Shown: positions 10,707 to 45,873 of the stretch, piece after piece
Layout: each line of letters starts with the position of its first letter
How positions within the stretch are numbered: position 1 is the first letter of the stretch
NCBI RefSeq assembly: GCF_032854445.1
Contig: NC_088295.1
Coordinates: 18,029,385-18,093,384 of the forward strand
DNA length: 64,000 bases
From: Liolophura sinensis
Lineage: Eukaryota > Mollusca > Polyplacophora > Chitonida > Chitonidae
Direction: 5' to 3'
Program-made: the position numbers and the translations under genes
The notes under the pieces: model-generated
What the model saw: only the letters and a program-made list of their open reading frames with translations
Told to the model about the DNA's origin: nothing
The model's database searches: none

Positions 10707-13700
10707 ATGAGGGGTAGCGAGGATTTACACAAACTGACCGATTCAATATACAAGGTAAGTGGACGCCAGTAGAATAACTGTGACAGATGACCAACAGGTT
10801 GGTGTTTGGCTGAGCTCCGTGGAGCTGCCCTGGCTGAATTTCCCGTCACTGTGGAGGATAGATGGGTGTGTACAGGTAAACAATACGTAGAGTAGATTGT
10901 CACTGACAGGCGCATGAGTCGAGTGTAAGGCCGACCCGACCTCTCTGCCATTGTGGCAATCATTCATAATAGCGTCTCCCCCAGCCTAGTATCATGGACA
11001 TTCGAACGAATGAATGTTTCTCAGTGCCGGTTTAAATTTAAAATTGTGCGAAAATACTACATAATAATGCTGTGCTTTAAATCATACATGTATTGATTTA
11101 ATAAACCAGATCCAGTCACATAAGCGATAGGGCGTGTACATTTCATGTTGAAGTTATATATTTTGTTTTTACCACCCCAAATTCTGCTTGTATGTGTATA
11201 GGCGGTACATATGTTTTGTTAGTTTTCGTTTTTTCGTTAGGCTTGCCATGTACCAGTTGGCCTACCTAACTGCATGATGCATACGCATATAGGTGTAGGT
11301 ATAGCATCTAGGTATATGCTATGCACTCAGGAATGTAGTTTTCCACTGCAATAGGTAAACACATTTAGTAAAGCCGTTGTTTGTTATTAATTTGCATATG
11401 TTTACGTGACGGCATATTGGGATGGGCATCCAAAGCAACAGATATGTATTGTGCAAAATAATTTTAAGTGACTAGTATAGGCCAAAATTATATCATCATA
11501 TTTGTTTAAATAAAAACAATGACAGGATTTGAACCAAGGAGCTGTGTTCAACATGAATTCAAGTCATCATCAGTCATAAACATAATAAAAATTATATGAG
11601 CCATAGACCTACATGTTACATGCATGGTTTTTAAATCAACTGCAATTCACGAAAGCTACAAAATCACAAATAATGTATAAAATTTGTAAGTATTTAATGG
11701 GCATGTAATTTAACAGAATAGTCTAAATTATTATTAATGTCTAACTCTTCAGTGAGCAGGAACAGGTTTTAATTAGCCAAAGAAGTATTTATAATTTTAT
11801 TTTATAAATAAAAAATATCCCGAGCATCAGTTAAGATTGATGTATTATGGGATGTTCATATGCATATACTTGCTTTTGTTTCACTTGCAGGATAGAGAAT
11901 AGCAACTGTTATCCTCTGACCATAATGCTGGCTGCACTCTTATATGTGAAATATTCTTGAGTTCGGAGTAAAACACCAATCAAATAAATAAATAAATAAA
12001 TAGCAACTGTTATGTTTTGATCAAATAAGTGAAGAGGTTTGTCTGCCTGTGGTTCAAGTTGGAAAAATTTGGAAAAATAACCTTTATTTATTTGCCCAGA
12101 TTTCATCTCTCCTATTTCTTTTTCTTGTTGTGGAGGTAGCACCATCTAAAATTCCACCCATATAACAGTTTAAATTGGTAGGGCCTTACTGATTATATGG
12201 ATGGATAACATCGATATTCTACTGCCAGTAGTGCATAAATCCATCTGAATGTCCCAAAAAACATTGATTTCGTAGAAACAATGAAGTATATTACTGGTAA
12301 ATTGATTTTGTGTCACATGACCATATCAGTGTGGATGTCCCAAAGTGTTTTTGAAAAGGGTCAAGTTTTATTCATGTACATTTATAAAAATTTAACATCT
12401 TTCACTAAAGTACATCTGTTTGTTTTCCCTGCTGACATAATTTTACTTGTCAAAGTGTTGCTTGTACCTCTTAGTAAAATGTCATGAAGTGCACAGGACT
12501 GTCACTGTGCTGAGGGGAAAAAAGGATTTGTTTAATGTCAGCTTTACAGTGGGCCGGTTGTCTGCAAGAGTCAAGTACACCCATAGACAGAAGATCTCCT
12601 ACAGCATTTAATTGTTGATTTTTAAGGTGATCAATAGCCCTAGAGGAAAGATGGGCCTTGGAGAGAGAAGCCCTTGCAATGAAGTTTGTGGCTTGTGTAC
12701 ACTTTAATAGCACAAGTCTTAATATAGAAAGTCCAAGAGGGTGTAGATGTGGTCTTTGGCGGAGAGATTGTTTGTCGTTGGCCTCCTCTCATATCAAAGG
12801 TGTTACATCACTGAGGCTTTACAACAGTGCTGGGACAATCCCAATTGTGTCTTGTCAGAAAGGTGAAGACTGACCTAGATAAGCTCCTCCTGTCAGCTCC
12901 TCATCTAGACCAAGGAATTCCTCTCCCAGTAACAGCAAACAAACTGGATTGTTGACAGGAGAGACTGGTCCACAAGCCTTTTTTACCAACTCTAACTGGG
13001 TCACTGAAATGTGTGGATGAAGACAATGCTATGTGAAATATGGCGAGGTGGCCTGGAGCCGGTTGATGTCTGTGTCAATTGATTGTTAATATGCAGCCAG
13101 GCCACCTGGGGCTTATCAGCTGTTCATTGCTACACTTAGAGCGGACATATGATTGACAGCTGCAGCATCAGGAAATGTTGATTTCACAATTGACTACCCA
13201 GAAAACTGAAACTATGAGCAACAGACAAGCTATTAATGTATACCTTACAGGTTTATTTGCATGTAATTTACTGCAGCTTGAGGTTGTTTCAAAATTATGA
13301 CCAATGAATGCTTATCCTTTGATGAATTGGATTTGAATTAATTACATGTACATTGGATTTACCAGACAATCCTATATGTCTGAGGTTCAGACTGCACAGC
13401 CATGTGATAATTAGTGTATATTAATTAACCTGGCTTGTAACGTGTCTACTTATGTATTTGTAGCACCTGACAGAAAGCTTCAACCCAGGTGTGCGGAACC
13501 TTATAGTCTGTGGCAGAGCATATCACAAAGCCTTGACAGGTAAAATGTCAGCTCGAAACCTGATCACCCTAAGATAGACTGTTGACACTTCAGTGACCAG
13601 ATTACATCCTGACTACCAGATTACACCCATACCACCGATTACACCCAAACTGCCAGATTACATCCTCACTACCAGATTACACCCACACCACCGTATTACA

Positions 13701-16700
13701 TCCAAACTGCCAGATTACATCCTCACTACCAGATTACACCCACACCACCGTATTATATCCAAACTGCCAGATTACACCCACACCACCGTATTACATCCAA
13801 ACTGCCAGATTACATCCTCACTACCAGATTACACCCACACCACCGTATTATATCCAAACTGCCAGATTACACCCACACCACCATATTACATCCAAACTGC
13901 CAGATTACATCCTCACTACCAGATTACACCACCACTACCAGATTACACCCAAATAGACTCATTTATAGACTCATTATGGCCTAATGGCTAGAGAGTACGC
14001 CTCAAAGTCTGAATACTGGGATCAAACCTGTGTCAGGTCATAACAGACTTTAAAGAATAGTACGTGTTGCTGCCTTGCTGGGTGCTCACCACTAAGAGGT
14101 TAGAGCAAGGAAACAGGACTGGTTGATCCAGTGCCTATAATGTGACTGGGTGGGGTGTCATGCCTGGCGTTTACAGCACAATTCTTCAGTGGCGGTCGCC
14201 CTGCCACAAGAAGACACAGTATATGTACACACACCTAATGACTCCTTGTCATCATATGACTAAATTTTTTTTTAAAAAGTAAGATGATAAACCCCAAGCA
14301 TATGTATATACAGTTTGCTCTCAGTCCAACAGATTACACCTGCATTACCAGACTGCTTCTGCATTACCAAATTACACCCAGACTACCAGATTACACCCAC
14401 ACTACAAGATTGTCTTCAGTTTACCAGATTACACCCATACTACAAGATTACCCTCAGTCTACCAGACTACACCCACATTACGAGAGTATACCCACATTAC
14501 CAGATTATACACACTCTACCAGACTACACCCACATTACCAGAGTATACCCACATTACCAGATTTCACACACTCTACCAGACTACACCCACATTACCAGAC
14601 TATACCCACATTATCAGACTTCACACACTCTACCAGACTACACCTACATTACCAGACTATACCCACATTATCAGACTTCACACACTCTACCAGACTACAC
14701 CCACATTACCAGACTATACCCACATTACTAGATCACACTTTACTAGTTTCTTAAATGATGTTGGGTATCTCCATATTTCAACTACATATACTAACTTAAG
14801 GGATCTCAAAATTTCAAATTAAAGTGGATTAAATGAATTAAATTCAGCACTGACTTCCATAAAATTAACTTCTAAAATGTGGGTTTTTTTAACTTATTAA
14901 TTTTCTGTTACATCACAGTAGTTACTTTATAGTACATAAATAATAAAGTTTGATATCGTCATAGAAAATGTAAACCTTTCCTTCACTTTTCCCTAATGTG
15001 GAGCTGTTATATTTGTAGGGGCATCTGTCATGGCCAAATCGTACATAGATGCTATATCTAAACTAGGCCACAACTGTCGGGCAAACTGTAAAGGAGCTAC
15101 AAGAGAACTAGGTGAGTAAATTATCTCCTGCCATTAGTGCGTTGTTAAACCAGGTCTGTTCTGCTTTATATCCTTTCAGTGCTGTACAGTGAACAGTAGC
15201 TTGCCTCATGGTATAAAAATTCTGATGTTTATTGACTGGGTTATAAACAACCAGAAGCTGTGGTGTGTGGCCCATGTATTACGGTTAGCCTTAATTTAGA
15301 TTTATGTATTTACTTGATAGATGTTTTGCGGTGTAGTCAGATTTTTTATACAGTGAAGTTCAGGCAGATTATGTTATGGGTGTCGCAGTTTTATCTGCCC
15401 GTCCGTCTGTATCTTTGTCCGTCCTAGGGATTGTGTACATGCACATCATTAGTATCAGTTTCATGTGATATGTCATGACAGACATTTGTCCATTTCCATA
15501 GTTTCTGTGGTAATCGGTTTGCCAATTGCCCCTTACACGTAATATATAAATAGATAAGATTCACTAGTTGTTTTTCGTGTGCTGTTTTAATTTTTTATGG
15601 ATACATCGCTACAAAGGTGATGGTGTTTCATAGCTGTACAGAATTGCCATGGCAACCAGATTGCCAATTTATCTGTATAGTAAATAAATACGGCAAATAT
15701 TGAGTTCACCTGACATGCCTGAACTCGTTTTACTCATATGATGGTGGGGCCATGACTTAGTGGTTAGCGCAACACAGTGACCCAGGAGCCTCTCACAAAT
15801 GTGATGGCCGTGAGTCTAACTCATACTGACCTCCTCTCCTGTCAAATGTTGCAAGGTCTGGCATCAATCTGCGGATGATCATGATTTTTGCCTGGGCTCT
15901 GTCTGCCCGGTTTTCTCCCGTCATAATGCTGTTAGCCGTCATATAAGTGAAGTATTCTTAAAACTCTAATCAAATAAGTAAGTAAATGAATATGACGCTG
16001 TTGTTGGTTTCTGAGTGGTTGAAATGGAAGTAAAGCATCTCCATTAGCCCGGTACCTAACAGATGTCTTGACTTAGCTGTGTCTAAAGCAGCAACAGCTA
16101 GGTTCAAATCTGTGATTTCATTGGTCAAGTGCCTGAGGTAAGCCAGGTACGTGGATATTTAGACAAGGAAGTTGATGTATGACCCCCCAACAGATAACCT
16201 AATTGGTGTGTCAGCTGCCGGTATTCTCCCCACTCTACTGTCTGTCACACTCAAATGTCATGTCTTAAATTTTTTTTAAAATAAATTATCCATTTGTTAA
16301 AATTTATTTGTGCCTTTAATTTAATTTTTGTATCATATGACACAAGAGAGGCTTTTTATCTTCAGATTTAAATCGTTTTGCTGCAGAAATTGTCTGTCAT
16401 TTTATGTACTTTTTTTATGCCTTCCTGGGTCTGTAAGTGGAGACATATGATATGCTGAAAATGTTACCTTAACTTTTGTAGTTTTCAGCAAATGAATCCT
16501 TTGATCGCATATTTGGTCTCAGCATAAATGTACACTCCTTTCTAGAATACATCTGATCTAGTATTATTTATTTGGTATGGAGTAAGGCACGTGTCATGTG
16601 ACATTTCCCTGGCTTCTTATGTCAATTAAACTGACGTCAGTCACATGAATAACATACCCTTGAGTACATATGTAACATAAGACCAGTCACACTTTATCCT

Positions 16701-19700
16701 TAGTGTTCCCCTGAAGGAAGTCATTATTTCAGTTTTTACCAGAAATTCTCACAAGAAGTGAAATTATTATAGAAATTAGCCAAAATAATGATAAGGAAAA
16801 ATGAAAATTAATCTGCTGCCCACACCATTTTTATAAATTATACTGAAACAAGGACTCAAGTGACATCGTCCCAAAACTCTATTTATATAGTTTTTATTAA
16901 GTGTTTGCTGCACTTAAGGATCAATAAGAACCATATTGTTTCTCAGTGACCTTGACCTATTATTGATTTAAGAAGGTATGCTTCTATTACCTGGTTAACA
17001 CATAATATCCTGCAATTTTGTTTATTATAGCAGAAGAGTATGTAGTGCACCGAAGGGTATTATTATCATATTTTATTTAACAGTATATAAAAAAATAAGG
17101 CATGCATACAACGGGAGCAAAAAATAACCGTGTCATTAAATATTGTTAGAAAAGACCACTGTAAAACAGCATAATGTAAGATTGCTTTTAATTGAAATCT
17201 ACATACTTGAACACGAGCAGTCAACATATTTAGCGAATCTCTTCAGGTCAGACAATGTATATTATGTCATGGTCGTGAAATTTCAGGCTATATATATGTT
17301 GTCACTTTATGATGTCAAGGCTATTGATGAACAGTGGTCGATGGACCAGATATCATTGTACTTATAGCTGAAACTATACTTGTACACTCGTGACTGAACA
17401 TTCGTATTACCTTAAGCCACACGGAGCGTCTGATATCAGATATAATAAAGTTCACAAAGGACCATTGTAAATCTATGATAATATGAAGGTATGTTAGTCT
17501 ATACATATGCATGTCAGACATTTTCCCAATTTTGATACAGTGTACATTATGTTCTTACTGTACTTGACATGATTGATACAGGATGCTTTTTTCACCTGTC
17601 AACTGTTTGAACATTGCAAAAAAGTGTTTAACGTCATGGTAATTTATGACACCAGTGATGCTACATGTATGGAGGGAGGCTGAGTGGGAGTTGGACAGTT
17701 GCACAAATCCATCATTTAATTATATGCAGAAAATACAACAATATCTCTGAATTATTTCATAAGTTTATGGATGAAAACTGATATTGATGCCATTGGGTTT
17801 ATAGTATCATGGATAAAACTGTCTGCTGTGGGATGAAACAGGTGGAAGAAGATCTCCTGCCCTCAAGCCTTCTCTTTTTAAAGCAGATGTAACAAAAATA
17901 ATATCATACCTGGTATTTCGGAACAGAACTGTCATTTAAATTGCATGTGAACTGCCTGTGGGTGAAATACTGCAGATAGTTACTGTGCAATGACTGTGCA
18001 GGTTTTCATCATTTTGTATCTGTACGGGATGAAGCTTTACGTTTTAACATGTTACAGTTTGTCATAAAATTAATGCGTATTTGGGTTGGTGTTTTTTGTT
18101 AAAAAAATTTTTTTTCCGTTTGTTATTAACATAACAGTAAACGTTTGGTCTAATGTAAATGGTGCTGGGAAAAAGATCAACCTCAGTGCATGTAGTGCTG
18201 ACATTGTGTACTCACTGCATGCAGGACTTAAGAAAAAAAAATTGTTTTAGGTGTTCTTGTTCACAGTTAATAAAACATTTGTCCTCGTTCACAGCCAGCT
18301 ATACCCCTCAGGCTTGTACATCAAGTCATTTTGTGTCTTGTTTAAGGCCAGGTAAAAATGGATTAATTAAGAGTTGACTATGGATTTGTCATGAGTTTGT
18401 ATGAGGCAAAATTGTTTGGGAATGGAGTGAAATGCAAGTTTGTGGCCAGGGCTTATGGTTGGGAACTGTCGGGGGTCAAGTGTGGGGGGTTCTGGAGACT
18501 GAGAGGTTTGTGGGATGGGAATTACAGCGGCCCAAAACCGCACTCATGGGAAGTTCACGTCAGGCTTGACATCCTTTACCTGGCTGAAGTATTTACCTGG
18601 CGGATTGTCTGCCAAGTCGGCCGGCTTAGTGAGATTCTGCCGGGTACTTAACCCCATACCTGGTCAGTCTTATTGTGCCGAGGGGCGTTTGATGTTTGGG
18701 ACAGATCTGATTCCTGCAAATGGCAGTGGCTGCCTTCAGCATCGCTGACAAACCCACCCGACATCCCACATTACCCTCCTCTACCTCAGATTTAGATGTC
18801 ACTGTTAAGGGTTTAACATTCATACCTCCATATATCCCCTGTCATGTTCAGCAGATTTTCTCCTCTCCTGTAAAGATATTACTGCTGCCAAGGGAAGCTG
18901 ATCGGAGCTGTCTTGTGGGAATTGCTCCTTTACATTTAGGCGTCTTTAAGCTATTAATATTTGTTGACGCAGAGTGGCCCAATTGGCCAATGTACAATGT
19001 ATTGTATGAACAATCAGAGTGTCAATTCAGCCTAATTCTGTTATGCGCAGGATTTTATCACACTTCTCTGTTGTGAATTATGGATTGAACTTGTTTTATT
19101 AAACATGGATGTCCTCTTTGTTGTCCTCCTTACACACAAGAGGCTGAATCCTATATTACTCGTCCTTGAGACATCTAATGCCCTTTTTTACACCAGCTTA
19201 ACCCGATTAAATCCCAAGAAATTGTTTTGCTGTCACACTTCAACCCCACTCCCAGACTCACCCTGCACACATATAGCTGCTGACTCTGTACTTAGGGATG
19301 GGGATATAAGGTTCTGTTCTACAATCACTGATCCATTCTCTAGCAGGCTCACCATACACACATATAGCTGCTGACTCTGTACTTAGGGATGGGGATATAA
19401 GGTTCTGTTCTACAATCACTGATCCATTCTCTAGCAGGTTCACCATACACACATATAGCTGCTGACTCTGTACTTAGGGATGGGGATATAAGGTTCTGTT
19501 CTACAATCACTGATCCATCCTCTAGCAGGCTCACCATACACACATATAGCTGCTGACTCTGTACCTGAGTATGGGGATATAAGATTCTATTCTACAATCA
19601 CTGATCCATTCTCTAGCAGGCTCACCATACACACTTATAGCAGCTCACTCTGTACCTGAGTATGGGGATATAATTCTGTTCTGCAATCACTGATCCATTC

Positions 19701-22700
19701 TCTAGCAGGCTCACCATACACACATATAGCTGCTGACTCTGTACCTGAGTATGGGGATATAATTCTGTTCTACAATCACTGATCCATCCTCTAGCAGGCT
19801 CACCATACACACATATAGCTGCTGACTCTGTACCTGAGTATGGGGATATAAGATTCTATTCTACAATCACTGATCCATTCTCTAGCAGGCTCACCATACA
19901 CACTTATAGCAGCTCACTCTGTACCTTAGTATGGGGATATAATTCTGTTCTACAATCACTGATCCATTCTCCAGGAGGTTCACCATACACACATATAGCT
20001 GCTGACTCTGTACCTGAGTTTGGGGATATAAGATTCTGTTCTTCAATTACTGATCCATTCTCTAGCAGGCTCACCATACACACATATAGCTGCTGACTCT
20101 GTACCTGAGTATGGGGATATAAGATTCTGTTCTACAATCACTGAACCATTCTCTAGCAGGTTCACCATACACACATATAGCTGCTGACTCTGTACCTGAG
20201 TATGGGGATATAATTCTGTTCTACAATCACTGGTCCATTCTCTAGCAGGCTCACCATACACACATATAGCTGCTGACTCTGTACCTGAGTATGGGGATAT
20301 AATTCTGTTCTACAATCACTGATCCATTCTCTAGCAGGCTCACCATACACACATATAGTTGCTGACTCTGTATCTGAGTATGGGGATATAAGATTCTGTT
20401 CTACAATCACTGATCCATTCTCTAGCAGGCTCACCATACACACATATAGTTGCTGACTCTGTACCTGAGTATGGGGATATAAGATTCTGTTCTACAATCA
20501 CTGATCCACTCTCTATCAAGCTCACCATACACACATATAGTTGCTGACTCTGTACCTGAGTATGGGGATATAAGATTCTGTTCTACAATCACTGATCCAC
20601 TCTCTATCAAGCTCACCATACACACATATAGTTGCTGACTCTGTACCTGAGTATGGGGATATAAGATTCTGTTCTACAATCACTGATCCACTCTCTATCA
20701 AGCTCACCATACACACATATAGTTGCTGACTCTGTACCTGAGTATGGGGATATAAGATTCTGTTCTACAATCACTGATCCATTCTCTAGCAGGCTCACCA
20801 TACACACATATAGCTGCTGACTCTGTATCTGAGTATGGGGATATAATTCTGTTCGACAATCACTGATCCATTCTCTAGCAGGCTCACCATACACACATAT
20901 AGCAGCTCACCCTGTATCTGAGTATGGGGATATAATTCTGTTCTACAATCACTGATCCATTCTCAAGCAGGTTCACCATACACACATATAGTTGCTGACT
21001 CTGTACCTGAGTATGGGGATATAAGATTCTGTTCTACAATCACTGATCCATTCTCTAGCAGAATCACCATACACACATATAGCTGCTGACTCTGTACCTG
21101 AGTATGGGGATATAACTCTGTTCTACAATCACTGATCCATTCTCTAGCAGGTTCACCATACACACATATAGCTGCTGACTCTGTACCTGAGTATGGGGAT
21201 ATAAGATTCTGTTCTACAATCACTGATCCATTCTCTAGCAGGCTCACCATACACACATATAGCTGCTCACTCTGTATCTGAGTATGGGGATATAAGATTC
21301 TGTTCTACAATCACTGATCCATTCTCTAGCAGGTTCACCAAACACACATATAGCTGCTGACTCTGTACCTGAGTATGGGGATATAACTCTGTTCTACAAT
21401 CACTGATCCATTCTCTAGCAGGCTCACCATACACACATATAGCAGCTCACCCTGTATCTGAGTATGGGGATATAATTCTGTTCTACAATCACTGATCCAT
21501 TCTCAAGCAGGTTCACCATACACACATATAGTTGCTAACTCTGTATCTGAGTTTGGGGATATAAGATTCTGTTCTACAATCACTGATCCATTCTCTATCA
21601 AGCTCACCATACACACATATAGCTGCTGACTCTGTACCTGAGTATGGGGATATAACTCTGTTCTACAATCACTGATCCATTCTCTAGCAGGCTCACCATA
21701 CACACATATAGCTGCTGACTCTGTACCTGAGTATGGGGATATAAGATTCTGTTCTACAATCACTGATCCATTCTCTAGCAGGCTCACCATACACACATAT
21801 AGCTGCTGACTCTGTACCTGAGTATGGGGATATAAGATTCTGTTCTACAATCACTGATCCATTCTCTATCAAGCTCACCATACACACATATAGCTGCTGA
21901 CTCTGTACCTGAGTATGGGGATATAACTCTGTTCTACAATCACTGATCCATTCTCTAGCAGGCTCACCATACACACATATAGCTGCTGACTCTGTACCTG
22001 AGTATGGGGATATAAGATTCTGTTCTACAATCACTGATCCATCCTCTAGCAGGCTCACCATACACACATATAGCTGCTGACTCTGTACCTGAGTATGGGG
22101 ATATAACTCTGTTCTACAATCACTGATCTATTCTCTAGCAAGCTCACCATACACACATATAGCTGCTGACTCTGTATCTGAGTATGGGGATATAATTCTG
22201 TTCTACAATCACTGATCCATTCTCCAGTAGGCTCACCATACACACATGATGTAGCTGCACACTCTGTGCCTCAGAATGGGAATTTAGCGGATATTGCACA
22301 GTGATGGTTGAATACCATGAATATTGTTCGAGCGAGAGGTAGAAATGATAACCCACAAGACCTGACTTTTTCTCTACATGTATATAAATGTGTATCAGTT
22401 TATCTGTTCCATACGTCAAAAAAATAAGCAGTATGCCATCTTTGTTGTATTTCCGATTCTATGCGCTGCAATTTTGTTCACATCCGTGCTGACAGAACCT
22501 TTTTACAGTTTTAAACGCTATCTGTAAGTAATTATACATTCTGCAAAGATGCTTAATGCTAATACAATATAGGTATTTACATAAATTAAGCACATGAAGA
22601 ATTTCCAGCTCTTTTTAGGTGAAATATATATTGTGCAGAAGTGCACAGCTGTGGGTCATGGGTCACACTCTGTGCCTGAGTATGGAGATATAAGATTCTG

Positions 22701-25700
22701 TTCTACAATCACTGATCCATCCTCTAGCAAGCTCACCATACACACATATAGCTGCTCACTCTGTATCTGAGTATGGGGATATAAGATTCTGTTCTACAAT
22801 CACTGAACCATTCTCTAGCAGGCTCACCATACACACATATAGCTGCTGACTCTGTACCTGAGTATGGGGATATAAGATTCTGTTCTACAATTACTGATCC
22901 ATTCTCTAGCAGGCTCACCATACACACATATAGCTGCTCACTCTGTATCTGAGTATGGGGATATAAGATTCTGTTCTACAAACACTGATCCATTCTCTAT
23001 CAAGCTCACCATACACACATATAGCTGCTCACTCTGTATCTGAGTATGGGGATATAAGATTCTGTTCTACAATCACTGATCCATTCTCTATCAAGCTCAC
23101 CATACACACATATAGCTGCTCACTCTGTATCTGAGTATGGGGATATAAGATTCTGTTCTACAATCACTGATCCATTGTCTATCAGGCTTGCCTTTAGCTA
23201 CCTGGTAAAATGCATTGGGTTATTTCTGTTTTCCTCCACTCATAATTGGTGCGTTATGATGTGAAAATCTCTTCAGAACAATGTAAAACAACACTCTTGC
23301 AAGCGGTTTTTCAAAACAGTATGCCGATATTTGGTTTCATTCCACATAATAAAAGACTTACAGCATTGAGAGTAAAAGCAGTGCAGCGACTACAGTGGGA
23401 TAATTGGTAAAGAGTCATACCTAACCGATGAAATATGACTTCTTGACGATTTACCTCTGTAACGATTAGGTTTTTATTCTAACTAAATAGTGGCAACTTA
23501 AACACCCCCTGGCACCATGGCTTAGTCAGAAGGTGGGGTGGTGCTAATTGCAGTTAAGCAGTGATGTTAATCGTGTCTACATTGAGCTGTATACCTTTAC
23601 ATATCCTCAGTTTTTACTCCACCACAGACCACAAACGTACATACTCTAATTTCTCAACTTTTGCACATATGAAAGAGCAACTTTCAGTGCTACTTATGCA
23701 CATATATTTATACATATATGCTCCACCAGAGATTCGCCTCAATATGGCTGTAAAATTGCTGATGTTGCCCTAAGGCATAATCATTCACTCCACCAGAGGC
23801 CCCAAGCATACATGTATATATACTCCACCAGAGACCCCAAGCAGACATACGCACATATATGCTCCACCAGAGACCCCAAGCTTACATACACATGTACATA
23901 CATACATATATACTTAAATGCATACATACATATATACTCCACCTGAGACCCCAAGCATACATGCATACATACTTCACCCGAGACCTCAAGCATACATACA
24001 TACGTACATATATACTCCATCAAAGATACAGTAATAAAGTGAAGAAAAAGATGACCGGAAATAGTATGAACCGTGCAGCCATGCTGTTATGCATCATAAC
24101 AAGCCTTGCGCTGGTCCATGTGTTTGCCTCACTATGTTTGACCACCGCGCTTCACTCTGGGAATTAATTGAGAAAGGAATGCTGCACATCTGAGTGATAG
24201 TCAGACCTGGATGCCATAGAGTGTTTGTTATTTGTTCCGCAGATATAACATATGTTGCTGGCCAAAGCTAGTTTGTTTTTTTAATCTCACTTGTCAAAAC
24301 CTGTATGTGGTTTGGGTGACAGAGACACGTATCATCATATCAGATTATATCTCTGGAATTTCTACATTTTCTAGATCTCTCCAGTTTCCTTCCACCCATG
24401 CAACTGACCATCATATAAAACAAAAAAGTATTGTATATGGCATTTAAACAACAATGAATCAAATCAAATTATCATTCACACTGTGGTATGATATGAGGGT
24501 GAATTTTTAGCCCATGTTGTGTGTTCGTTGATAAGAATGTTTGTCTTCCAGCAGTGCAGTGCAACCAGTTGGTCAGTGCAATAAATATTTGTAACCAAGA
24601 GACATAGTAATGGATTCCCAAAATACCATAATAGTCGTGGTAATGGTAATTTGCAATCTTCACAGGGATGTCCCAGTTTTCTCTGAGTTTGCCATGATAA
24701 TTTCATAATCTTATGTAACTGTGTTTTAGGTAGTTGAAATAGAAAATTATCATAATGAGGTGTAATATATGTATAGTTACATTTATGATTTGTCTCATTG
24801 TCTTACATGCAGATTCTTTGTTCTGTTTTCAGGTGAGGCTTTGTTCCAAGTAGCAGATGCATACAGACATATTCAGCTACAGATAGATGAGGCAGTAAGT
24901 ACTGTGCATAGGTTTAGCCAAAGGTGTCTCAGTCTCTTTGAAACACCCTATTCTGACAAAATTAACTTAGGTTCTAATTTGCCAACTCAAACGAACTTTT
25001 TACGTAGACTTTATTAGCTTGAGGAATAACCAGGGCCTGCCATGCGTCCCTCCTGGCATGCATGCATGCATGTGTAAGACAACAACAAAATGGTATGGTC
25101 ACAAGAAAAAAAAAGTGCCTTGCATAGATATCGGATGGCGCCTGGGTAAAACCAGAGATAAAACCTCGAAAGGAAAACTCTGGAACCAAGTTACCAAACA
25201 TCTCCAGTCTGGATGGCGGAATTCATCCAGTATAACAGTTGTTTTCAGAATGTATCAGACACTAGGTTATCCCAGATCCACTACTTAACCATAATACAGG
25301 CCATCCATGAACAAGCCTTGCATTCACCAATGCTACAAAGAAAAGAAGAAAACAACATGTATACCCCAAAAACACACAAAACCCCAAAATGACCATGCAT
25401 GCCAAGAGTTTGGCCACTGATTGTCGATGGCTATACACACCACTATCCCATTATATAGCCAAAGCATGAGCATATTAATGCTGCCTCAAAGTGCTTCAAA
25501 CCACACACAATGGACATTCAAACAGCCATTTCATATGAATAATTGTAACCGCTTCAGCACAGGTAAGCTTTGGCAAACCACAAATATCAGGCACAAATCA
25601 ATTCAGCTGACCACATAGTTTGAATGTTTGTAAAGACTCCTGTACCAATAACAAATGTATATGGGGGAGATTCGGAAAATAGGAGAAGATTGGAAATGAG

Positions 25701-28700
25701 ACGGCCTTATTTCAAATTGTGGCCAAAATGTATGGTACAAAGACATCTGCAAATCCACATTTTTGATCTGTAGTGTCCTGTCTACAAGTTACATGTATAC
25801 ACTCATAATGAGACCCTGATGTGCAGACAAAATCAAAAATTGACAAAGGCTTATTGTAACAGGACGCCCAACAACGAGGCACACTTTTTTATACTGCAGA
25901 TTCAGTCCTAGCTTTGGACAGGGAAGGTGTATATTCCCCTACTCTGCCTGTGCTTGAGGCGCTGTCATTAGGCTACCAAGCTCATCTTCCTGGTTCATGT
26001 AACACCTGGACCTCACCGGTGTCATATCTATCACTTCAGTAATCCTGAAGATGGTGAAACTTATCAGTGATCTACATTTGAATTGAATTTCCTCTTAATA
26101 TATTTCCTGTTGATTATTTTGCAGACCAAAGGTTTACTTACAGATTTCCTCACGCCTCTGGAAAACAAATTAGAAAATGAATTCAGGATTGAATCAGTAG
26201 TAAGTATATATATTCCTTCCAATCTACCAAGTCTACCATATTTGTTACTTAACCTCACCAGAATGGAATAAGTGATGTATTTTGGTTTCAATGAAACAAA
26301 GAAATTCTGGTCTGTAGTCACTGATCCATCCTCTCCCAGCCTCACCATAGATACATGTAGCTGCACATCCTGTACCTGAGTATCGGGATATAGAATTATG
26401 GTCTGTAGTCACTTAACTTTCTGCTATCAGGCTCACCATACACACATATAGCTGCTGACTCTGTACCTGGGTATGGGGATACAAGATTCTGTTCTGTAGT
26501 CACTGATCCATCCTCTCCCAGGTTCACCATACATATGTGTAGCTGCACACTCTTTACCTGAGTATGGGGATACAAGATTCTGTTCTGTAGTCACTTAACT
26601 CTCCATTATCAGGCTCACCGTACACAAATATAGTTGCTCACCCTCCACCTGAGTATGATGATATAAGATTCTTTTCTGTAGCCACTAAAGAATCACTCAC
26701 CTCTCCACTTCCAGGCTCACCATAAACGTTACCTCAATGGACACAAGACCATGTTGGCACCATATGAAAAGTCACAACGAACATTAAATAAAGTGAGAAA
26801 GAAGAGTAAAAGCAAATCTGTGGTGGATGATTCACAGGTATGTAGATAAAAATAACATACTTTGAGTTGCATGTCCATACCTTGTTATTATTAGGCAATT
26901 ATGCGTGTATGTGAGGTGCCAAAATGATAAATTTTGAAAAGGTATTGAGGTTAATGTAATTAGCTGAGTAATATTTGATGTAAATTTAGAATGAATGTTT
27001 CGATTTTTCACATTAAAGTAAGAGCGTTGTAATAATTTGTCGAGAAATGTATTTTACAAAAATTTTGATGGGTACAACTGTTTTTTCAGAAGCACATGTA
27101 GGCTCTGAAATAAGTCCTATATGGTGTATGAATCAATGAGAATCAAGGAAAATGTGTCATTGGACAAATGCTAAATTTTAGTTGAATTATAGTACATGTA
27201 ATTGTATTATTGGACAGTTTGCTACAAAAGTTACCATCTCTAAAGACAAGTTGGACAGGTTCAGACAGCAGGGATTGAAATTAGTGAGTATACATGTACC
27301 TTTATTCTTTATTAAATGGTAAAGACAGAATGTTTGACAGAATGGATATGTACAGTTAGCCTTTGTATATAGAACCTCCTAAGCATCGATTTGTTTATTT
27401 ATTTATTTCATTGGTGGTTTACGCTGTACTCAAGAATATTTCACTTTTACGACGGCGGCCAGCATTATGGTGGGTGGAAACGGGCAGAACCCTGGGGAAA
27501 CCCACGACCATCCACAGGTTGCTGACAGGCCAGCCCACTTACAGCTGGAGAGGAAGCCAGCATGAGCTGGACTTGAACTCACAGCAACTGCATTGGTGAG
27601 AGACTCCTGGGTCATTACGCTGCGCTAGCGCGCTAACCAACTGAGCCACGGAGGCCCCCCTAAGCATCGAGGTGACTCACTCATTGCTTAGTTTTCAGTT
27701 ATGGAAGATGAAATTATCACATATTTGTCTTAGATAACATTTGTGAGACGGTTACAATTTTTAAATGTTTCGAAAATTAGCTTAAAACATACTTCATATT
27801 TTGACTCCAGTCAGTAACGGTTTCGAGGAATCAGAATTGATAAACACAAGATTGGTATCTGATGAATTTTATGGTCTGTTCAAATTAATGTGTGTGAGAA
27901 CTACATTACGTTGTAGTGAGCAGTAGAAGTATTGCTTGTCATTGAAACCTACCTGCATCAGTGGATAAATTGTGACTACTTTAAGTGCTAGTGAATGATC
28001 TGAAAATAAAATACACATTGGAGCCAAAATGGTGTCTTATAGTTTTTATGCTTGATGACATCATTCATTCATCCATGAAAGCTTGTAAAAGTTTGGTATT
28101 TTATGTACATATTTCCTTCACAGGCTTTACTGGATGAAAGGAAGTATTATTGTTATGTCCTGGACAAGTGTATATTTATGGCCAAAAAATACTCGGACTA
28201 CCACAGAAGAGTGAGTATACATACATATTTGTACAGAATGATAACTTTCTGTATGTTTCAGTATTGTAGTAATCTATATGATATTTATGGGATTCAAGCC
28301 TAAGTCACCTTATTGTAGTGTGGTTACTTTTTCTTTTTATCGCTTTAATTAATGGTAAGCAGAAACATCAAAATACCGCATGAAGTTGTACCTAAATTGT
28401 AATAAAATGTGGATATTTATCCATTGGGAAATTTTGGTTTGTTATGGAAATCGTGTTAATTTATCTTACCTTAAAATGATGTCAAACTAACCAGTTTTCA
28501 TGGGAAGGTTTACCAGCAACCTGCAGATAGTCTTGAGTTTCCCCTCGGCCTCTGTCAGGGCTTGCCTCCCACCATAATGTTGTCTGTCATCACCTCGGCC
28601 TCTATCAGGGCTTGCCTCCCACCATAATGCTGTCTGTCATCACCTCGGCCTCTGTCAGGGCTTGCCTCCCACCATAATGCTGTCTGTCATCACCTCAGCC

Positions 28701-31700
28701 TCTGTCAGGGCTTGCCTCCCACCATAATGCTGTCTGTCATCCCCTCGGCCTCTGTCAGGGCTTGCCTCCCACCATAATGCTGTCTGTCATCCCCTCGGCC
28801 TCTGTCAGGGCTTGCCTCCCACCATAATGCTGTCTGTCATCTCCTCGGCCTCTGTCAGGGCTTGCCTCCCACCATAATGCTGTCTGTCATCCCCTCGGCC
28901 TCTGTCAGGGCTTGCCTCCCACCATAATGCTGTCTGTCATCCCCTCGGCCTCTGTCAGGGCTTGCCTCCCACCATAATGCTGTCTGTCATCACCTCGGCC
29001 TCTGTCAGGGCTTGCCTCCCACCATAATGCTGTCTGTCATCATATAAGGGAATTATCCTTTAGTATAAAAAGGATAATAAAATAACTGAATAGATAACCA
29101 GATATGAAAATGCATCTTTGAACGTAAACTGTATGTTTGCTTATGTTGAAAGAACGAGAGGTGATAGTGTATTTGAGAAAATGTATTTACCACTTCTGAT
29201 TGAATGTGAGTTTTTCATTTTGTAAATGAATGTTCTTTATACAAATATTATATGTTATATTTGTATTAGGGCTATGAACTTATTGCCAGTCGGATGAGAG
29301 ACTGGGAGAAGACAACTTTCCAACCTGATACTCTGCCAGAATCCTCGGAATGCTTACTTGAAATTTCTCATACGGTAACACACATTTTCAGAAACATTAA
29401 TATTGATTTATAAAACAACTTTTACCATCAAATGACATTTTCATGAAGTTTGAAAGAGAGCATATTATCAGTTTAATAATTTTCCGGGGTTTACATTGAC
29501 TGTATCTGGGCATGTTTTAAGAGATATGTTCTAGTCAGAATTATTAAATTATACTTATGTTTTCAAATTCACCAGCCCAGTCAAAGTATTCTTACTTATG
29601 AATTCTAGCCATTGCTATGCGTGCAAAAATATTTCCAATTTTATTTGGTTGAAGCATACATTGAAGAATCTCCCCTGTGTGCCCATCATTTGACATGAAA
29701 CATTATCACTATGCATGCTGACATTAGTAGGTTTCTGAAACTGAAAAATGATAACAGTTTTCAATAGATGGTTCCAAAAATGAAAGTTGTAATGAAGAGG
29801 TTGTACTGACAGTGAAGAAAGCTAAAACATGAGGACTTACCAAATATAAGGTTCCACATTTTATGTGTGTCTTCATATAGCCTGCTTCATAGTACATGCA
29901 GAACTCTCTGTTTCTCTATTTTTCTGTTTCTCTTACCCTGCATGGATATATTTCTGCTTCTGTTACCCTGCATGGATATTTTCATGTTTGTGTTATACAG
30001 GGTAATGGTTATGGCCCTCCTCAAGCCAGGGGAGACTACTCTATGATGTATGATGACCCCTACAGACGAGCCGCTGTGGATTACATGAGACAGATGCCTG
30101 ATCGCTTTCCTCCAAGCGATTCCTTCAGGGACAGTATGTGCATGTCTATTGCGTTTGTACAGTTCTGAAGACCTTATACTACAGAACAGTTCCTATACTG
30201 TTTAGTTCACGTTTCTGTGGTATTCTTCATGTATGATGTTACATGTATTAAAGTTTACGCTCACAATATTCTCCCAGTTACTGACAAAGTCACTGTCAGT
30301 GGCATTTATTCAGAGTCACTGTAGATTTCCTTCAGTGATCAGATCAAATCAATGTCGGGAACATAATCCTAAGTAGTGTTGTAGTGAAACCCAGTAACTC
30401 ACTAGTCAATCAATCAATCAACCATCTGACTGGTAACAGTCATACATAAGTAAAGACGTATAGCATGTATGGGGGGCCTCAGTGACCTAGTGGTTAGCAT
30501 GCTAGTGGGATACAATGACTTAGGAGCCTCTCGCTAATGCAGTGGCTGTGAATTCAAGCCCAGCTCATGCTGGCCCAACTTATCTGCGGTCTGTCTGGAA
30601 CCTGTGCATGGTTGTGGGTTTCCCCGGGCTCTGGTCGATTTCCTCTTACCACAATGCTTGCTGCTGTTGTAGAAGTGAAATATTCTTCTGTAAGGTATAA
30701 AACACCAATCAAGTAAATAAATAAACATACCATGTGTCTTTTTTGCTTTTATCCAGCCACATTGCTGACACGATCAATCACAGTCCCTCCTGCCCCTAAC
30801 CAGGGCATTCTGGTGAGGGCTGTGTACAACCATAGTGCTGAGGGGGAAAGTCAGTTGAACTTTGTGGAGGGGGACGTGATCAGTTTGCTTGGGGACAAAT
30901 CTGATGGCTGGCACTATGGACACAACTCCAGGACCAGCAAGTATGTCTCTGCCACGGCTGTTACGTTGATGCATGTCTTCTTTAAAGTCTCTCACTTCAT
31001 TTCCAGACTTACATATGCATCTGAAAACTAAGCACACAAGAGATATTGTTTATGCAGATAGATGTACACATTAGGTTAAAGCAAAGAGTGTATTGCAAAA
31101 AAGGTGATAGCAATAGAGTGATAGACAGTAGCTGAAGGTTTTCTCATTGGGGTGACCTTTGTTGGCTTTATTTGGGGTTTTTCCTTTGTCTTTCCAAGTT
31201 ACATGATGTGCTAAGTGTAATACCAAGAGATGTTTGAAGCTTTCAGAGGTTATCCAATTTGTTCTCCAAAGAGACAAACAGTTAAATGAAGGTACAACAG
31301 GCTTTATCCCAAGCTTTATGATATTAACTTTTGCTCATGTGACTGTTACTGGATACATATGATATGCGAGTACCTTTTTGGCTCACTTATGAAACTACAG
31401 ATAACAATTGTCTCACCACTAGTATGGCAGTTGACATCACAGGTCAGATAAAATATGCTTGTGCTGTCTTTCACCAGTTTTTCTCACACTTACCTGTATG
31501 GAAAGAAACATTGTATTCCACAGTTTTTATCAAACACACAATCCATCACACAAGAAGAAAGATATTTTCACTGATTTTACACATTATGCTGAAACACACT
31601 GTAAACTTCTCTTGTCAAATTTTTTGCATGCACCACCCATTGTACCAGGATGATTATAGATTTTATTTCAACTTTTTTTTCTTAAAACTCAGGTATGGAT

Positions 31701-41800: not shown

Positions 41801-43372
41801 TAAAATGTAAGCTTCAAGACCAAAAGGAAACTTTTATTGCATTTATTTGCATCTGAAAATAGTCTAATGTAGGCAGTTGTTTTTTTTTTGTCATTTACAG
41901 TGAGTGTTTTCCAGTGCTTGGGAACATCATCAACTGAGGCAATAGATAATAAGAATTTTCAGAGAATTACCAGTTTGATATTTTTCCTTTGATTGCAGTG
42001 TCATTTGTCAGTTAAGGCGAGTTCTTTGTATTAGGAATTTGAAACTGCGGAAATCTATAGGCTTATAAATTTTACCGGGTTATGGATCTTCTAACTAAGT
42101 TACCCTAAATCTTCAACAGATTCAACCACATAATGCATGATATGGCAAAGTGGAGGAATACCTACTAGCTAATGTCAACAGTTTATTATATAATTCTGTA
42201 CCCTTACCTGAATGATACATTTTCGCTCATCTTATGAATTATGCTTTCATTTTTTTTTAGCATCTAAATTTATATGTACTGGACCTGTTGGTTGAGGATT
42301 TAAGGTGATGCATTGTGTTGGATGGCTTATTCCTTCATTTATTGTTGGTGACGTTTTAATGCACCTGTAGATTCTTGTGTCTGTTTTCAAACGATTGATA
42401 AGTGGCTTGAAAGGGATGTTAGATGTAATATTGAAACACCCGCAGGAATAAATTGAGAAGTGTGTTATCCAAAAGTAAAGTGTTATTAACTTAGTTCATG
42501 GAACAGCTCCTAAATGCCACTTCAAACTTGTATGCCATTTTTCTCCATATATTTGGGGAGATATGAAATGTTAGCAAACATCTAAAGAAAGTATACAACA
42601 CTTTTATGTCTTGGTTGTTTCAACATTTTGGTTTATTGGCAACTTTGACTGTAGTTTTGTTATTGTCAGTCACATTCTGTATGAAATGGATGAATTTTTC
42701 TTGTGATTAAAATGGTTAAGCTCAGCATCTTTATTGGAAAAGTTCCAGATGATTTTCTGACCAGAGGCATTCCAGTCAGGTACAACCAGGATATTATAAG
42801 TGTCAAATAAAACACCGAATAAATATATGTACAGACAAAGCACAAAGTCTATGCCAGGTTAGTGTTATAAAGTTGTGACTTCATACCACCATGTGAGTTT
42901 CTATTAATAAATATATTTGTCAGTTAAACTTCATCTGATATGATTCTTGTCTCCATTAATTACTGTAATTCTTTAAACTTTTCGCATGTTTGCAAGATGT
43001 TCTTGTAGACATATTGGAAGGGCTTTAGTTTGTGTAGACTGATAAAATTGTGCTTGTGAAGCCCTGACATCGGCCAATCCAACCAATGTAGTTCTGTCTC
43101 CAAAATCAATTATAAATGTGCGGAAATTGCACCGAAAGTTGGTCTTTCAAATGCGAAAAGGTTGATTAATTACATTGTTGATTAGACACATTGTGATGGT
43201 GTACGTCAAATTCACAGTGTTGTGTATATATATGTATGCCAATCTGAGATAATTTCCATCATCTGGTGGATTTCTGATGAATTCTCTAGTAATTTCATAA
43301 TGTATATTTAGATGTCAACAGTAACAAACTATAAAGTCTGTAGTTAACAGACTTAGATGATTTGATGTATTG
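38867..43372. other. Intergenic stretch, no gene seen
   Basis: This is AT-rich DNA. A SINE-B tail remnant is at 40053-40101 (GTGAAATATTCTGGAACGGA, CAGTCAAATAAATAAA). Frames at 40711-40989 and 41063-41257 show no family resemblance. Part of this could be extended BAIAP2 3' UTR. Confidence 0.5.
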
Positions 43373-44245
43373 TCAGCATTGACTCCTTGATCAGGATGAT
43401 GTGACGTGATGTCAGGATAGTCGGGGCTGTTGGTAAGGTGTTTGCATTATCTGACACCTTGATGAGGATGATGTGATGTGATGTCAGGATAGTCGGGGCT
43501 GTTGGTAAGGTGTTTGCATTATCTGACACCTTGATGAGGATGATATGATGTGATGTCAGGATAGTCGGGGCTGTTGGTAGGTGTCGGCATTATCTGACAT
43601 CTTGATGAGGATGATGTGATGTGATGTCAGGATGGTGTGTCCAATTGGTAAGGTATTTGCATTATCTGACACCTTGATGAGGATGATGTGATGTCAGGAT
43701 GTTGTGTCCAATTGGTAAGGTGTTTGCATTATCTGACACCTTGATGAGGATGATGTGATGTGATGTCAGGATGGTGTGTCCAATTGGTAAGGTGTTTGCA
43801 TTATCTGACACCTTGATCAGGATGATGTGATGTGATGTCAGGATGGTGTGTCCAATTGGTAAGGTGTTTGCATTGTCTGACACCTTGATCAGGATGATGT
43901 GATGTGATGTCAGGATGGTGTGTCCAGTTGGTAAGGTGTTTACGTTATCTGACATCTTGATCAGGATGATGTGATGTGATGTCAGGATGGTGTGTCCAGC
44001 TGGTAAAGTGTTTGCGTTATCTGACATCTTGATCAAGATGATGTGATGTGATGTCAGGATGATGTGGCCAGTTGGTCAGTTTTTTTCATTATCTGACACC
44101 TTGATCAGGATGATGTAACGTGATGTGAGGTCAGGATGGTCTGGCCACTTTGTAAGGTGTCGGCATTATCTGCCACCTAGATCAGGATGATGTAATGTCA
44201 GGATTGTGTGGTCATTTGGACGGCATTATCTGACACCTTGGTCTG
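43373..44245. repeat. 72-bp minisatellite, about 12 copies
   Basis: The unit is GACACCTTGATCAGGATGAT, GTGATGTGATGTCAGGATGG, TGTGTCCAATTGGTAAGGTG, TTTGCATTATCT. GACACC at 43807 and 43879 gives 72 bp. The left copies carry GTCGGGGCTGTTGG instead of TGTGTCCAATTGG. A 124-codon minus-strand frame follows from the 72-bp period. Confidence 0.92.
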
Positions 44246-44321
44246 GTGTCGGGGGGGAAAATGTGATTTATTATGTACACATGGTGTCAGACGTCCACTC
44301 TGTGACACTGTACTCATAATA

Positions 44322-45262
44322 ATGTGATTAATATGCCATTGTCTGGATTAAGTGATTGATCAGGTCAATGTCAGGATATTGTGATTGATCAGGTCAATGT
44401 CTGGATTAAGTGATTGATCAGGTCAATATTCAGTTTAAGTGATTGGTCAGGTCAATGTCAGTGCAATGTGATTAACCAGGACATTATCAAGGTAATGTAA
44501 TTGATCAGGTCAATGTCAGGATAATGTGATTGATCAGATCAATGTCAGAACAAGGTGATTGATCAAATCAATGTCAGCGTCATGTGACTGATCAGGTCAA
44601 TGTCGGGATTAAGTGATTGATCAGGATAATGTGACTGATCAGGTCAATGTCAGAATAATGTGATTGATCAGGACAATGTCAGAGTAATGTGACTGATCAG
44701 GTCAATGCCCAGACTAAGTTATTGATCAGGTTGATATCCAGATTGTCATTGATGAGGTCAAGGTCAGGATAATGTGATTAATCAGGACAATGTCAAGATA
44801 ATGAAATTGATCAGGATAATGGGATTGATCGGGTCAATGTCAGGATAATGGGATTGATCAGGTCAATGTCCGGATTAAGTGATTGATTAGGTCAATATTC
44901 AGCTTAAGTGATTGTTCAGGTCAATGTCAGTGCAATGTGATTAACCAGGACATTATCAAGGTAATGTAATTGATCAGGTCAATGTCAGGATAATGTGATT
45001 AATCAGGACAATGTCAAGATAATGTAATTGATCAGGATAATGGGATTGATCAGGTCAAAGTCAGGATAATGGAATTTGTCAGGTCAATGTCAGGATGATG
45101 TTATCGATCAGGATAATGTGATTGATCAGGATGATGTTATTGATCAGGTCAATGTCTAGATTAAGTGATTGATCAGGTCGATATCCAGATTAAGTGGTTG
45201 GTCAGGTCAGTGTCAGGATAATGTGATTGATCAGGCCAGTATCACGATAATGTGATTGGTCA
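44322..45262. repeat. Minisatellite of about 29 bp built on TGATCAGGTCAATGTCAGGA
   Basis: More than 25 variable units of GATTGATCAGGTCAATGTCA plus GGATAATGT occur, many interrupted. It directly follows the 72-bp array and shares with it the core TTGATCAGGATgATGT, so the two may have a common origin. Confidence 0.9.
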
Positions 45263-45873
45263 GGGCAAAGAAGGTGAATGGTGTGATGCCTGGACAACTT
45301 GTCTTACCTTAATTCTTCTAAAATTTCGAAGACCTGGTCTGTTCATTTTAATATATATGTAGTTCTAGCAGAAATATTGAGTTTCTTTTTTTCTCTAGTG
45401 GTTAGACCATCTATTGGAAGACATACTCTTATCTTTACTTTCCACAGGGCTGGTAAAGAAATGTAATATTTTACTTCCAACACTACTAACAGCTGTCCCA
45501 AATTTTAGAAGAATTAGGGTAGTCAGGTCTAAGCTTGAACTGGTATCAGGTTCCTGTAATTGTCCCTTATATGATCATGGGATGTGATAAGGTGTTACGA
45601 CACATAAATCTACTGTTGAGAGATATCTGTCCTGCACACGAAACTTGGAATGGTAAACAGTTATACATTCCCTTGCATATGTATCTGTATATTCAATATG
45701 GCTCAATATTATTTATTACACCATCAGCACACGTCAGCACAGAAGTCTATCAAACATCATAGCAATACCTGTCCCACTTGTATTGCTCAGAGGACATTGT
45801 GAACACTGGAGTTCGTAGCTCACTAGTCTGTTCTCATCCATTGCTCTAGTCTCTTTCGGAAGTCACCTTTGTG

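What the first reader, a model, noticed from the sequence alone, without database searches (positions are those of the whole stretch)
26297..26837. A 91-bp minisatellite is in register with the exon 6 splice acceptor of BAIAP2
Seen directly: AG|GCTCACC recurs at 26339, 26430, 26521 and 26612, each 91 bp apart, and the next occurrence (26714) is the real 3' splice site of exon 6. The last 14 intron bases and first ~13 exon bases match the repeat unit closely (CTCTCCACTTCCAG|GCTCACCATAAAC against CTCTCCATTATCAG|GCTCACCGTACAC). Each unit also keeps a branch-point-like CTGAT or TTAAC. Inference: the minisatellite was seeded by duplication of an intron-exon junction, or the exon edge has been rewritten by the repeat. 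The result is a ladder of decoy acceptors ahead of a coding exon of the I-BAR domain.
Basis: partly seen in the sequence, partly recalled or inferred. Interest (0 to 1): 0.75.

Follow-up and report, generated by a model that had tools for sequence, protein, structure and literature searches.

The report
Minisatellite that contains a splice acceptor
In what is probably a chiton gene for a membrane-bending protein, a 91-base tandem repeat runs up to and into a coding exon, so that the exon's own splice site looks like the last copy of the repeat; this resembles the "mirage" repeats known from amphioxus and may show how satellites arise from, or take over, splice sites.

Summary
A 91-bp tandem repeat fills most of intron 5 of a BAIAP2/IRSp53-like gene, and the exon 6 acceptor with about 13 coding bases is homologous to it: 26691-26727 matches the other 43 units at 23-29 of 37 bases, against at most 21 among 118,710 background 37-mers. 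Corrections: exact AGGCTCACC occurs in only 2 of the 4 upstream units, and the last spacing is 102, not 91. The assembly's statistics match Liolophura sinensis, a chiton. Best explanation: a mirage-type duplication of the intron 5/exon 6 junction, later copied to intron 3 and amplified. The reverse (repeat captured the exon edge) is not excluded; no related species could be compared. Two of four decoy acceptors score like the real one under a small home-made matrix; splicing to any of the four gives TAG at codon 7. Use in RNA was not testable. Mirages are known in amphioxus; seven searches of an open-licence library gave no molluscan case.

The parts
26291..26727 (+). intron-5 91-bp minisatellite: partial left unit, four units, 11 extra bases, and a last partial unit that holds the exon 6 acceptor and about 13 exon bases
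   Evidence: TRF core 26302-26686; left edge by alignment to the left edge of the intron-3 array; right extension by alignment
26691..26727 (+). last partial unit = intron tail, AG at 26713-26714, first 13 bases of exon 6
   Evidence: 23-29 of 37 matches to the 43 other units; background maximum 21
26125..26199 (+). exon 5 of BAIAP2-like gene (75 nt)
   Evidence: translation TKGLLTDFLTPLENKLENEFRIESV; IMD match
26715..26837 (+). exon 6 (123 nt), part of the I-BAR/IMD domain
   Evidence: translation AHHKRYLNGHK...; joined exons 4-7 match human IRSp53, PDB 1y2o, E 5.8e-10, and Pfam IMD, E 1.9e-10
26338..26339 (+). decoy AG of unit 1
   Evidence: score -3.74 against 2.44 for the real acceptor; TAG at codon 7
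26429..26430 (+). decoy AG of unit 2
   Evidence: score 2.37; TAG at codon 7
26520..26521 (+). decoy AG of unit 3
   Evidence: score -2.25; TAG at codon 7
26611..26612 (+). decoy AG of unit 4
   Evidence: score 3.77; TAG at codon 7
19206..22287 (+). intron-3 array of the same 91-bp unit, main block
   Evidence: TRF 19253-22280, 33.5 copies, 94%; edges by alignment
22665..23188 (+). intron-3 array, second block, after about 377 bp of other sequence
   Evidence: TRF 22666-23188, 5.7 copies, 95%
24833..24894 (+). exon 4 (62 nt)
   Evidence: GEALFQVADAYRHIQLQIDEA, IMD
15019..15111 (+). exon 3, probable (it makes the intron of the large array intron 3)
   Evidence: GASVMAKSYIDAISKLGHNCRANCKGATREL: of 73 open, phase-compatible AG...GT stretches, one of 4 that passed a motif filter of mine, chosen for its likeness to the IMD as recalled; not confirmed by a profile search

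Best explanation
A mirage-type minisatellite. Shown: the intron-5 array and the exon 6 acceptor are one homologous series, the acceptor being its last, partial copy. Inferred: the seed was the intron 5/exon 6 junction itself (tail of intron, AG, about 13 coding bases). A tandem duplication joined a copy of this junction to about 37 bp of filler of unknown origin, giving a 91-bp unit; slippage or unequal exchange made further copies. The array (or a copy of it) also came to lie in intron 3, where it was amplified and homogenised to about 39 units. In the RNA the array is most likely passive: the spliceosome uses the last acceptor. Two upstream copies look as good as the real site, and any use of a decoy would put a stop codon six codons into the added sequence, so such transcripts would be expected to go to nonsense-mediated decay.
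For: Similarity of acceptor and units and its absence at the other splice sites tested, 30001 being marginal. The unit was found in no other place of the 609-Mb genome: 40 of 40 pattern matches and 12 of 12 and 14 of 14 DNA matches lie in this locus (the tool calls its counts lower bounds), so it does not look like a dispersed satellite that happened to land here. Intron-5 units are diverse (p-distance 0.13-0.30 among the four over the 54-nt core; acceptor 0.15-0.25 from them), while the intron-3 units compared are mostly similar (0.02-0.11 among three, 0.17-0.22 to the right-edge unit; 94% matches by TRF), which fits an older intron-5 array and a later amplification. The left edges of both arrays align with each other (1 of 1000 shuffles reaches the score), as expected of copies of one array. 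Within the shared 13 coding bases the residues A and K match human IRSp53 in the phmmer alignment, where the intron-5 units would give T or R instead of K, so these bases look like old exon rather than imported repeat. The same architecture is described for amphioxus globin, Adh, TnC and PGBD5 genes (passages of PMC3087553, and PMC3902484).
Against: Only about 14 exon-side bases are shared; the remainder of the unit has no counterpart in exon 6 and no long match elsewhere in the window. The exon 6 acceptor is the most C-rich of the gene's 11 (10 C of 18, others at most 5), more like the repeat than like its sister sites, which fits capture by the repeat; but one of four acceptors of the MTSS-like gene has 11 C. 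The His-His region carries one residue more than human IRSp53, though the stretch matched to the Pfam profile has the same length as the profile stretch. The intron-3 left edge aligns with the intron-5 left edge but not with the intron-3 consensus (score 7). Homogenisation can make an older array look younger.
Confidence: 0.58

Rival explanations
1. Capture: the 91-bp array arose in intron 3 from other DNA; a piece was copied into intron 5 with its right end at exon 6, and replaced the native acceptor and the first coding bases by repeat sequence.
For: The C-rich tract of the exon 6 acceptor is unlike the other 10 acceptors of the gene; the extra residue against human IRSp53 lies at the exon edge; the intron-3 array is far larger.
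Against: Intron-5 units are more diverse than the intron-3 units compared; a conserved A and K fall within the shared 13 bases, and the units would encode T or R instead of K. The intron-3 right flank gives no clear sign of either direction (122/1000 and 50/1000 shuffles reach the anchored score against exon 6).
Confidence: 0.32
2. Decoy ladder with a function: the repeated acceptors compete with the true site and tune BAIAP2 output through unproductive splicing, with repeat number as the dial.
For: Two of four decoys score like the real acceptor; four of four lead to TAG at codon 7; all four keep a YTNAY pentamer 18-19 bases upstream, as the real site does.
Against: A 14-site matrix is crude; no RNA data; amphioxus mirages are reported not to disturb splicing; copies of one unit would keep their AGs without selection for a while.
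Confidence: 0.08
3. Coincidence: a pyrimidine-rich acceptor resembles a pyrimidine-rich repeat by chance.
For: The intron-side 22 bases alone match only moderately (12-16 of 22); the intron tail alone is reached by 125, 227, 8 and 112 of 500 shuffles for four unit versions, and the exon part alone by 36, 2, 60 and 2 of 500.
Against: Background maximum 21/37 against 23-29/37; intron tail and exon part together give 1, 0, 0 and 0 of 500; the match sits at the array's end.
Confidence: 0.02

Closest known systems
Mirages of amphioxus (Adh3, globins BflGb6 and BflGb9, TnC, PGBD5)
   Same: Minisatellite-like tandem duplication that includes an intron-exon boundary; many units carry AG/GT signals; edge units escape homogenisation (passages of PMC3087553 and PMC3902484; the Adh paper of Canestro et al. 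2002 is not held, and is cited second-hand).
   Different: Here in a mollusc; only about 13 exon bases are in the unit; the unit has about 37 bp of filler; a second, larger array of the same unit lies in another intron of the same gene.
Internal tandem repeats of human genes in segmental duplications (PMC2812944, passages)
   Same: Repeats at exon-intron boundaries can alter splicing and form novel introns.
   Different: There units average 30 bp, in primate-specific paralogues, half of them within coding exons; here a 91-bp intronic array ending in an exon.
Human IFI6 (6-16) minisatellite that offers several splice donors
   Same: A minisatellite that carries splice signals beside a coding exon.
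   Different: Donors, not acceptors, and a shorter unit.

Membership tests
mirage minisatellite | tandem units that span an intron-exon boundary, the last being the real boundary | tested here: met
   26691-26727 homologous to the units
mirage minisatellite | units include exon sequence | tested here: met
   about 13 exon bases only; beyond that no similarity above shuffles
mirage minisatellite | many units keep splice signals | tested here: met
   AG in 4 of 4 upstream intron-5 units; 2 of 4 score like the real site
mirage minisatellite | internal homogenisation, divergent edge units | tested here: met
   intron 3: 0.02-0.11 among three units compared, 0.33-0.48 between the left-edge unit and the nine others compared
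mirage minisatellite | duplication arose from the boundary, not the reverse | tested here: inconclusive
   searches point both ways
mirage minisatellite | normal splicing is kept | not testable with these tools
   no RNA reads available
mirage minisatellite | length instability between haplotypes | not testable with these tools
   one haplotype available
dispersed satellite or transposon-borne repeat | copies at many loci | tested here: not met
   the matches (12, 40, 14) all lie in this locus; the tool states that counts are lower bounds

The most novel reading that the evidence does not exclude
An exon edge has become a satellite: a splice-acceptor junction seeded a minisatellite that then moved to another intron of the same gene and grew to 39 copies, while the parent array left equally strong acceptors in front of a coding exon, so that repeat number could set the share of unproductive BAIAP2 transcripts. 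Mirages would then be a general animal mechanism rather than an amphioxus peculiarity.
Probability: 0.12. Interest if true: 0.7.

Novelty: new member of a known kind. Interest (0 to 1): 0.42.

Why it matters
Boundary-spanning minisatellites have been proposed as a route to new introns (PMC3087553, passages). A case in a mollusc, with a unit found at one locus only and a second array in another intron, would extend the phenomenon beyond cephalochordates and offers a testable example, since other chiton genomes are published. It also supplies a natural series of similar competing acceptors for studying splice-site choice.

Tried and rejected
Related species: scans of viral contigs and genome contigs with a 59-aa exon 5-6 peptide gave no relative (11 and 92 pattern stretches, none confirmed). 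The own paralogue (MTSS-like, L001) was read by eye for its intron positions; its nearest intron is not at the same place, and a first hand alignment of mine that suggested a 13-nt shift was wrong and was dropped. Note that the IMD family search rang at L001 only and not at the window's own exons, so such searches miss exons. Idea that the intron-3 right flank carries more of exon 6: not significant (122/1000 and 50/1000). Idea that the rest of the unit derives from exon 6: not significant. Source of the filler: no long match in the part of the window outside the arrays (best 10 exact bases in the part of the list that was printed). Claim that the exon 6 acceptor is the weakest of the gene: seen with a matrix trained on the other sites, gone with leave-one-out (rank 39 of 1007 AGs, the other 14 sites 2 to 709). 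Crude genome control: of 31 loci from this genome (L001 and 30 kinase loci), 6 hold a TRF array of at least 2.5 copies and period 20 or more, and 0 have one within 100 bp of the matched stretch; match ends are not always exon edges, so this is weak. One search (motif search for further exons) found exon 2 only.

Full report
What is there. The window holds a BAIAP2/IRSp53-like gene on the + strand: exons 4 to 7 joined match human IRSp53 in the PDB (1y2o, E 5.8e-10) and Pfam IMD (E 1.9e-10), and an SH3 domain follows (E 1.3e-9). Exon 5 is 26125-26199, exon 6 26715-26837. The assembly has 609,464,459 bases in 632 contigs. A published chiton assembly has 609,495,693 bases in 632 scaffolds (passages of PMC11068029), and a correction renames its species Liolophura sinensis (whole text of PMC12441733). 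The identity is inferred from these numbers only, and the totals differ slightly.

The observation. Intron 5 carries a 91-bp repeat (TRF 26302-26686, 4.2 copies, 77% matches; a 182-bp period scores higher, so units alternate). The AGs of the four units lie 91 bp apart. Exact AGGCTCACC is present in two of the four (26429, 26611) and at the real acceptor (26713); the other two units differ by one base. The distance from the fourth unit to the real acceptor is 102, with 11 additional bases. A YTNAY pentamer lies 18-19 bases upstream in all five.

More than chance. The 37-nt segment ending 13 bases inside exon 6 matches the other units at 23-29 of 37; of 118,710 background 37-mers the best is 21. 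Of 45 places that passed the first filter, 39 lie in intron 3, 5 in intron 5 including the acceptor itself, and one, at 43269, matches the acceptor at only 16/37. Shuffles of 26687-26740 reach the score in 1, 0, 0 and 0 of 500 for four unit versions; exon 6 alone gives 36, 2, 60 and 2, and the intron tail alone 125, 227, 8 and 112 of 500, so the case rests on the two halves together. Of 15 splice sites tested, 26715 alone has a clear neighbouring copy (29/40); 30001 is marginal (22/40, reached by 1 of 45 background places). For 26715 one of 45 background places also reached 29, and it lies in the intron-3 array at 19321; the next is 21. The splice sites of exon 3 were found later and not tested.

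The same unit forms a 39-unit array in intron 3 (19206-22287 and 22665-23188). Genome searches with an intron-5 query (12 matches), an intron-3 query (14 matches) and a 23-base pattern with up to 3 mismatches (40 matches, forward strand; the reversed control pattern gave 3) found nothing outside this locus. The tool states that counts are lower bounds. So the repeat appears private to this gene.

Direction. For the junction as seed: diversity of the intron-5 units against similarity of the intron-3 units compared; conserved A and K inside the shared 13 bases; left edges of the two arrays that align, although the intron-3 left edge did not align with the intron-3 consensus. For capture: the C-rich acceptor (10 C of 18, others of this gene at most 5; one of four of the MTSS-like gene has 11) and an additional residue relative to human IRSp53 at the exon edge, which the Pfam profile does not show. 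The intron-3 right flank is uninformative. I put about 0.58 on seeding and 0.32 on capture; these are judgements, not computed.

Function. With a matrix from 14 other acceptors (10 of this gene, 4 of the MTSS-like gene), the real site scores 2.44 and the decoys -3.74, 2.37, -2.25 and 3.77; in 500 bootstraps the decoys at 26613 and 26431 reach the real site in 427 and 256, the other two (26340, 26522) in 1 and 3. Each decoy joined to exon 5 runs into TAG at codon 7. Whether decoys are used is unknown. Reports on amphioxus say that mirages leave splicing intact, so passive carriage is the default.

Known or new. Boundary-spanning minisatellites called mirages are described for amphioxus genes (passages of PMC3087553 and PMC3902484). 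Of eight searches of the open-licence library, the seven on such repeats gave these papers and no molluscan case that I recognised in the listings. Of molluscan papers listed, an abalone gene has an ordinary intronic minisatellite (passages of PMC6905558) and a Conus intron paper names minisatellites only in a reference (passages of PMC3862624). The library lacks most subscription papers, including the original mirage paper, so absence there is weak evidence.

Noticed in passing
29922-29999: A 30-bp repeat (2.6 copies) runs into the pyrimidine tract of the acceptor of the exon from 30001: a possible second, small mirage-like case in the same gene, marginal against background.
   Followed up: partly
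22288-22664: About 377 bp of other sequence splits the intron-3 array; both sides share about 30 similar bases (CACTCTGTGCCT...), as after an insertion or a break repair.
   Followed up: partly
13596-13951 and 14362-14738: Two arrays of the same 19-bp unit (ACCAGATTACACCCACAC) in intron 2, the first starting some 56 bp after the exon 2 donor.
   Followed up: no
28543-29042: A 50-bp repeat, 10 copies, 98% matches, between exon 7 and the exon at 30001: probably a young array.
   Followed up: no
19206-26727: The two 91-bp arrays are direct repeats flanking exons 4 and 5 (62 + 75 nt); unequal recombination between them would delete both exons and shift the frame (inference).
   Followed up: no
43380-45268: Long complex minisatellites (72-bp and 29-bp units) further downstream in the window.
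   Followed up: no
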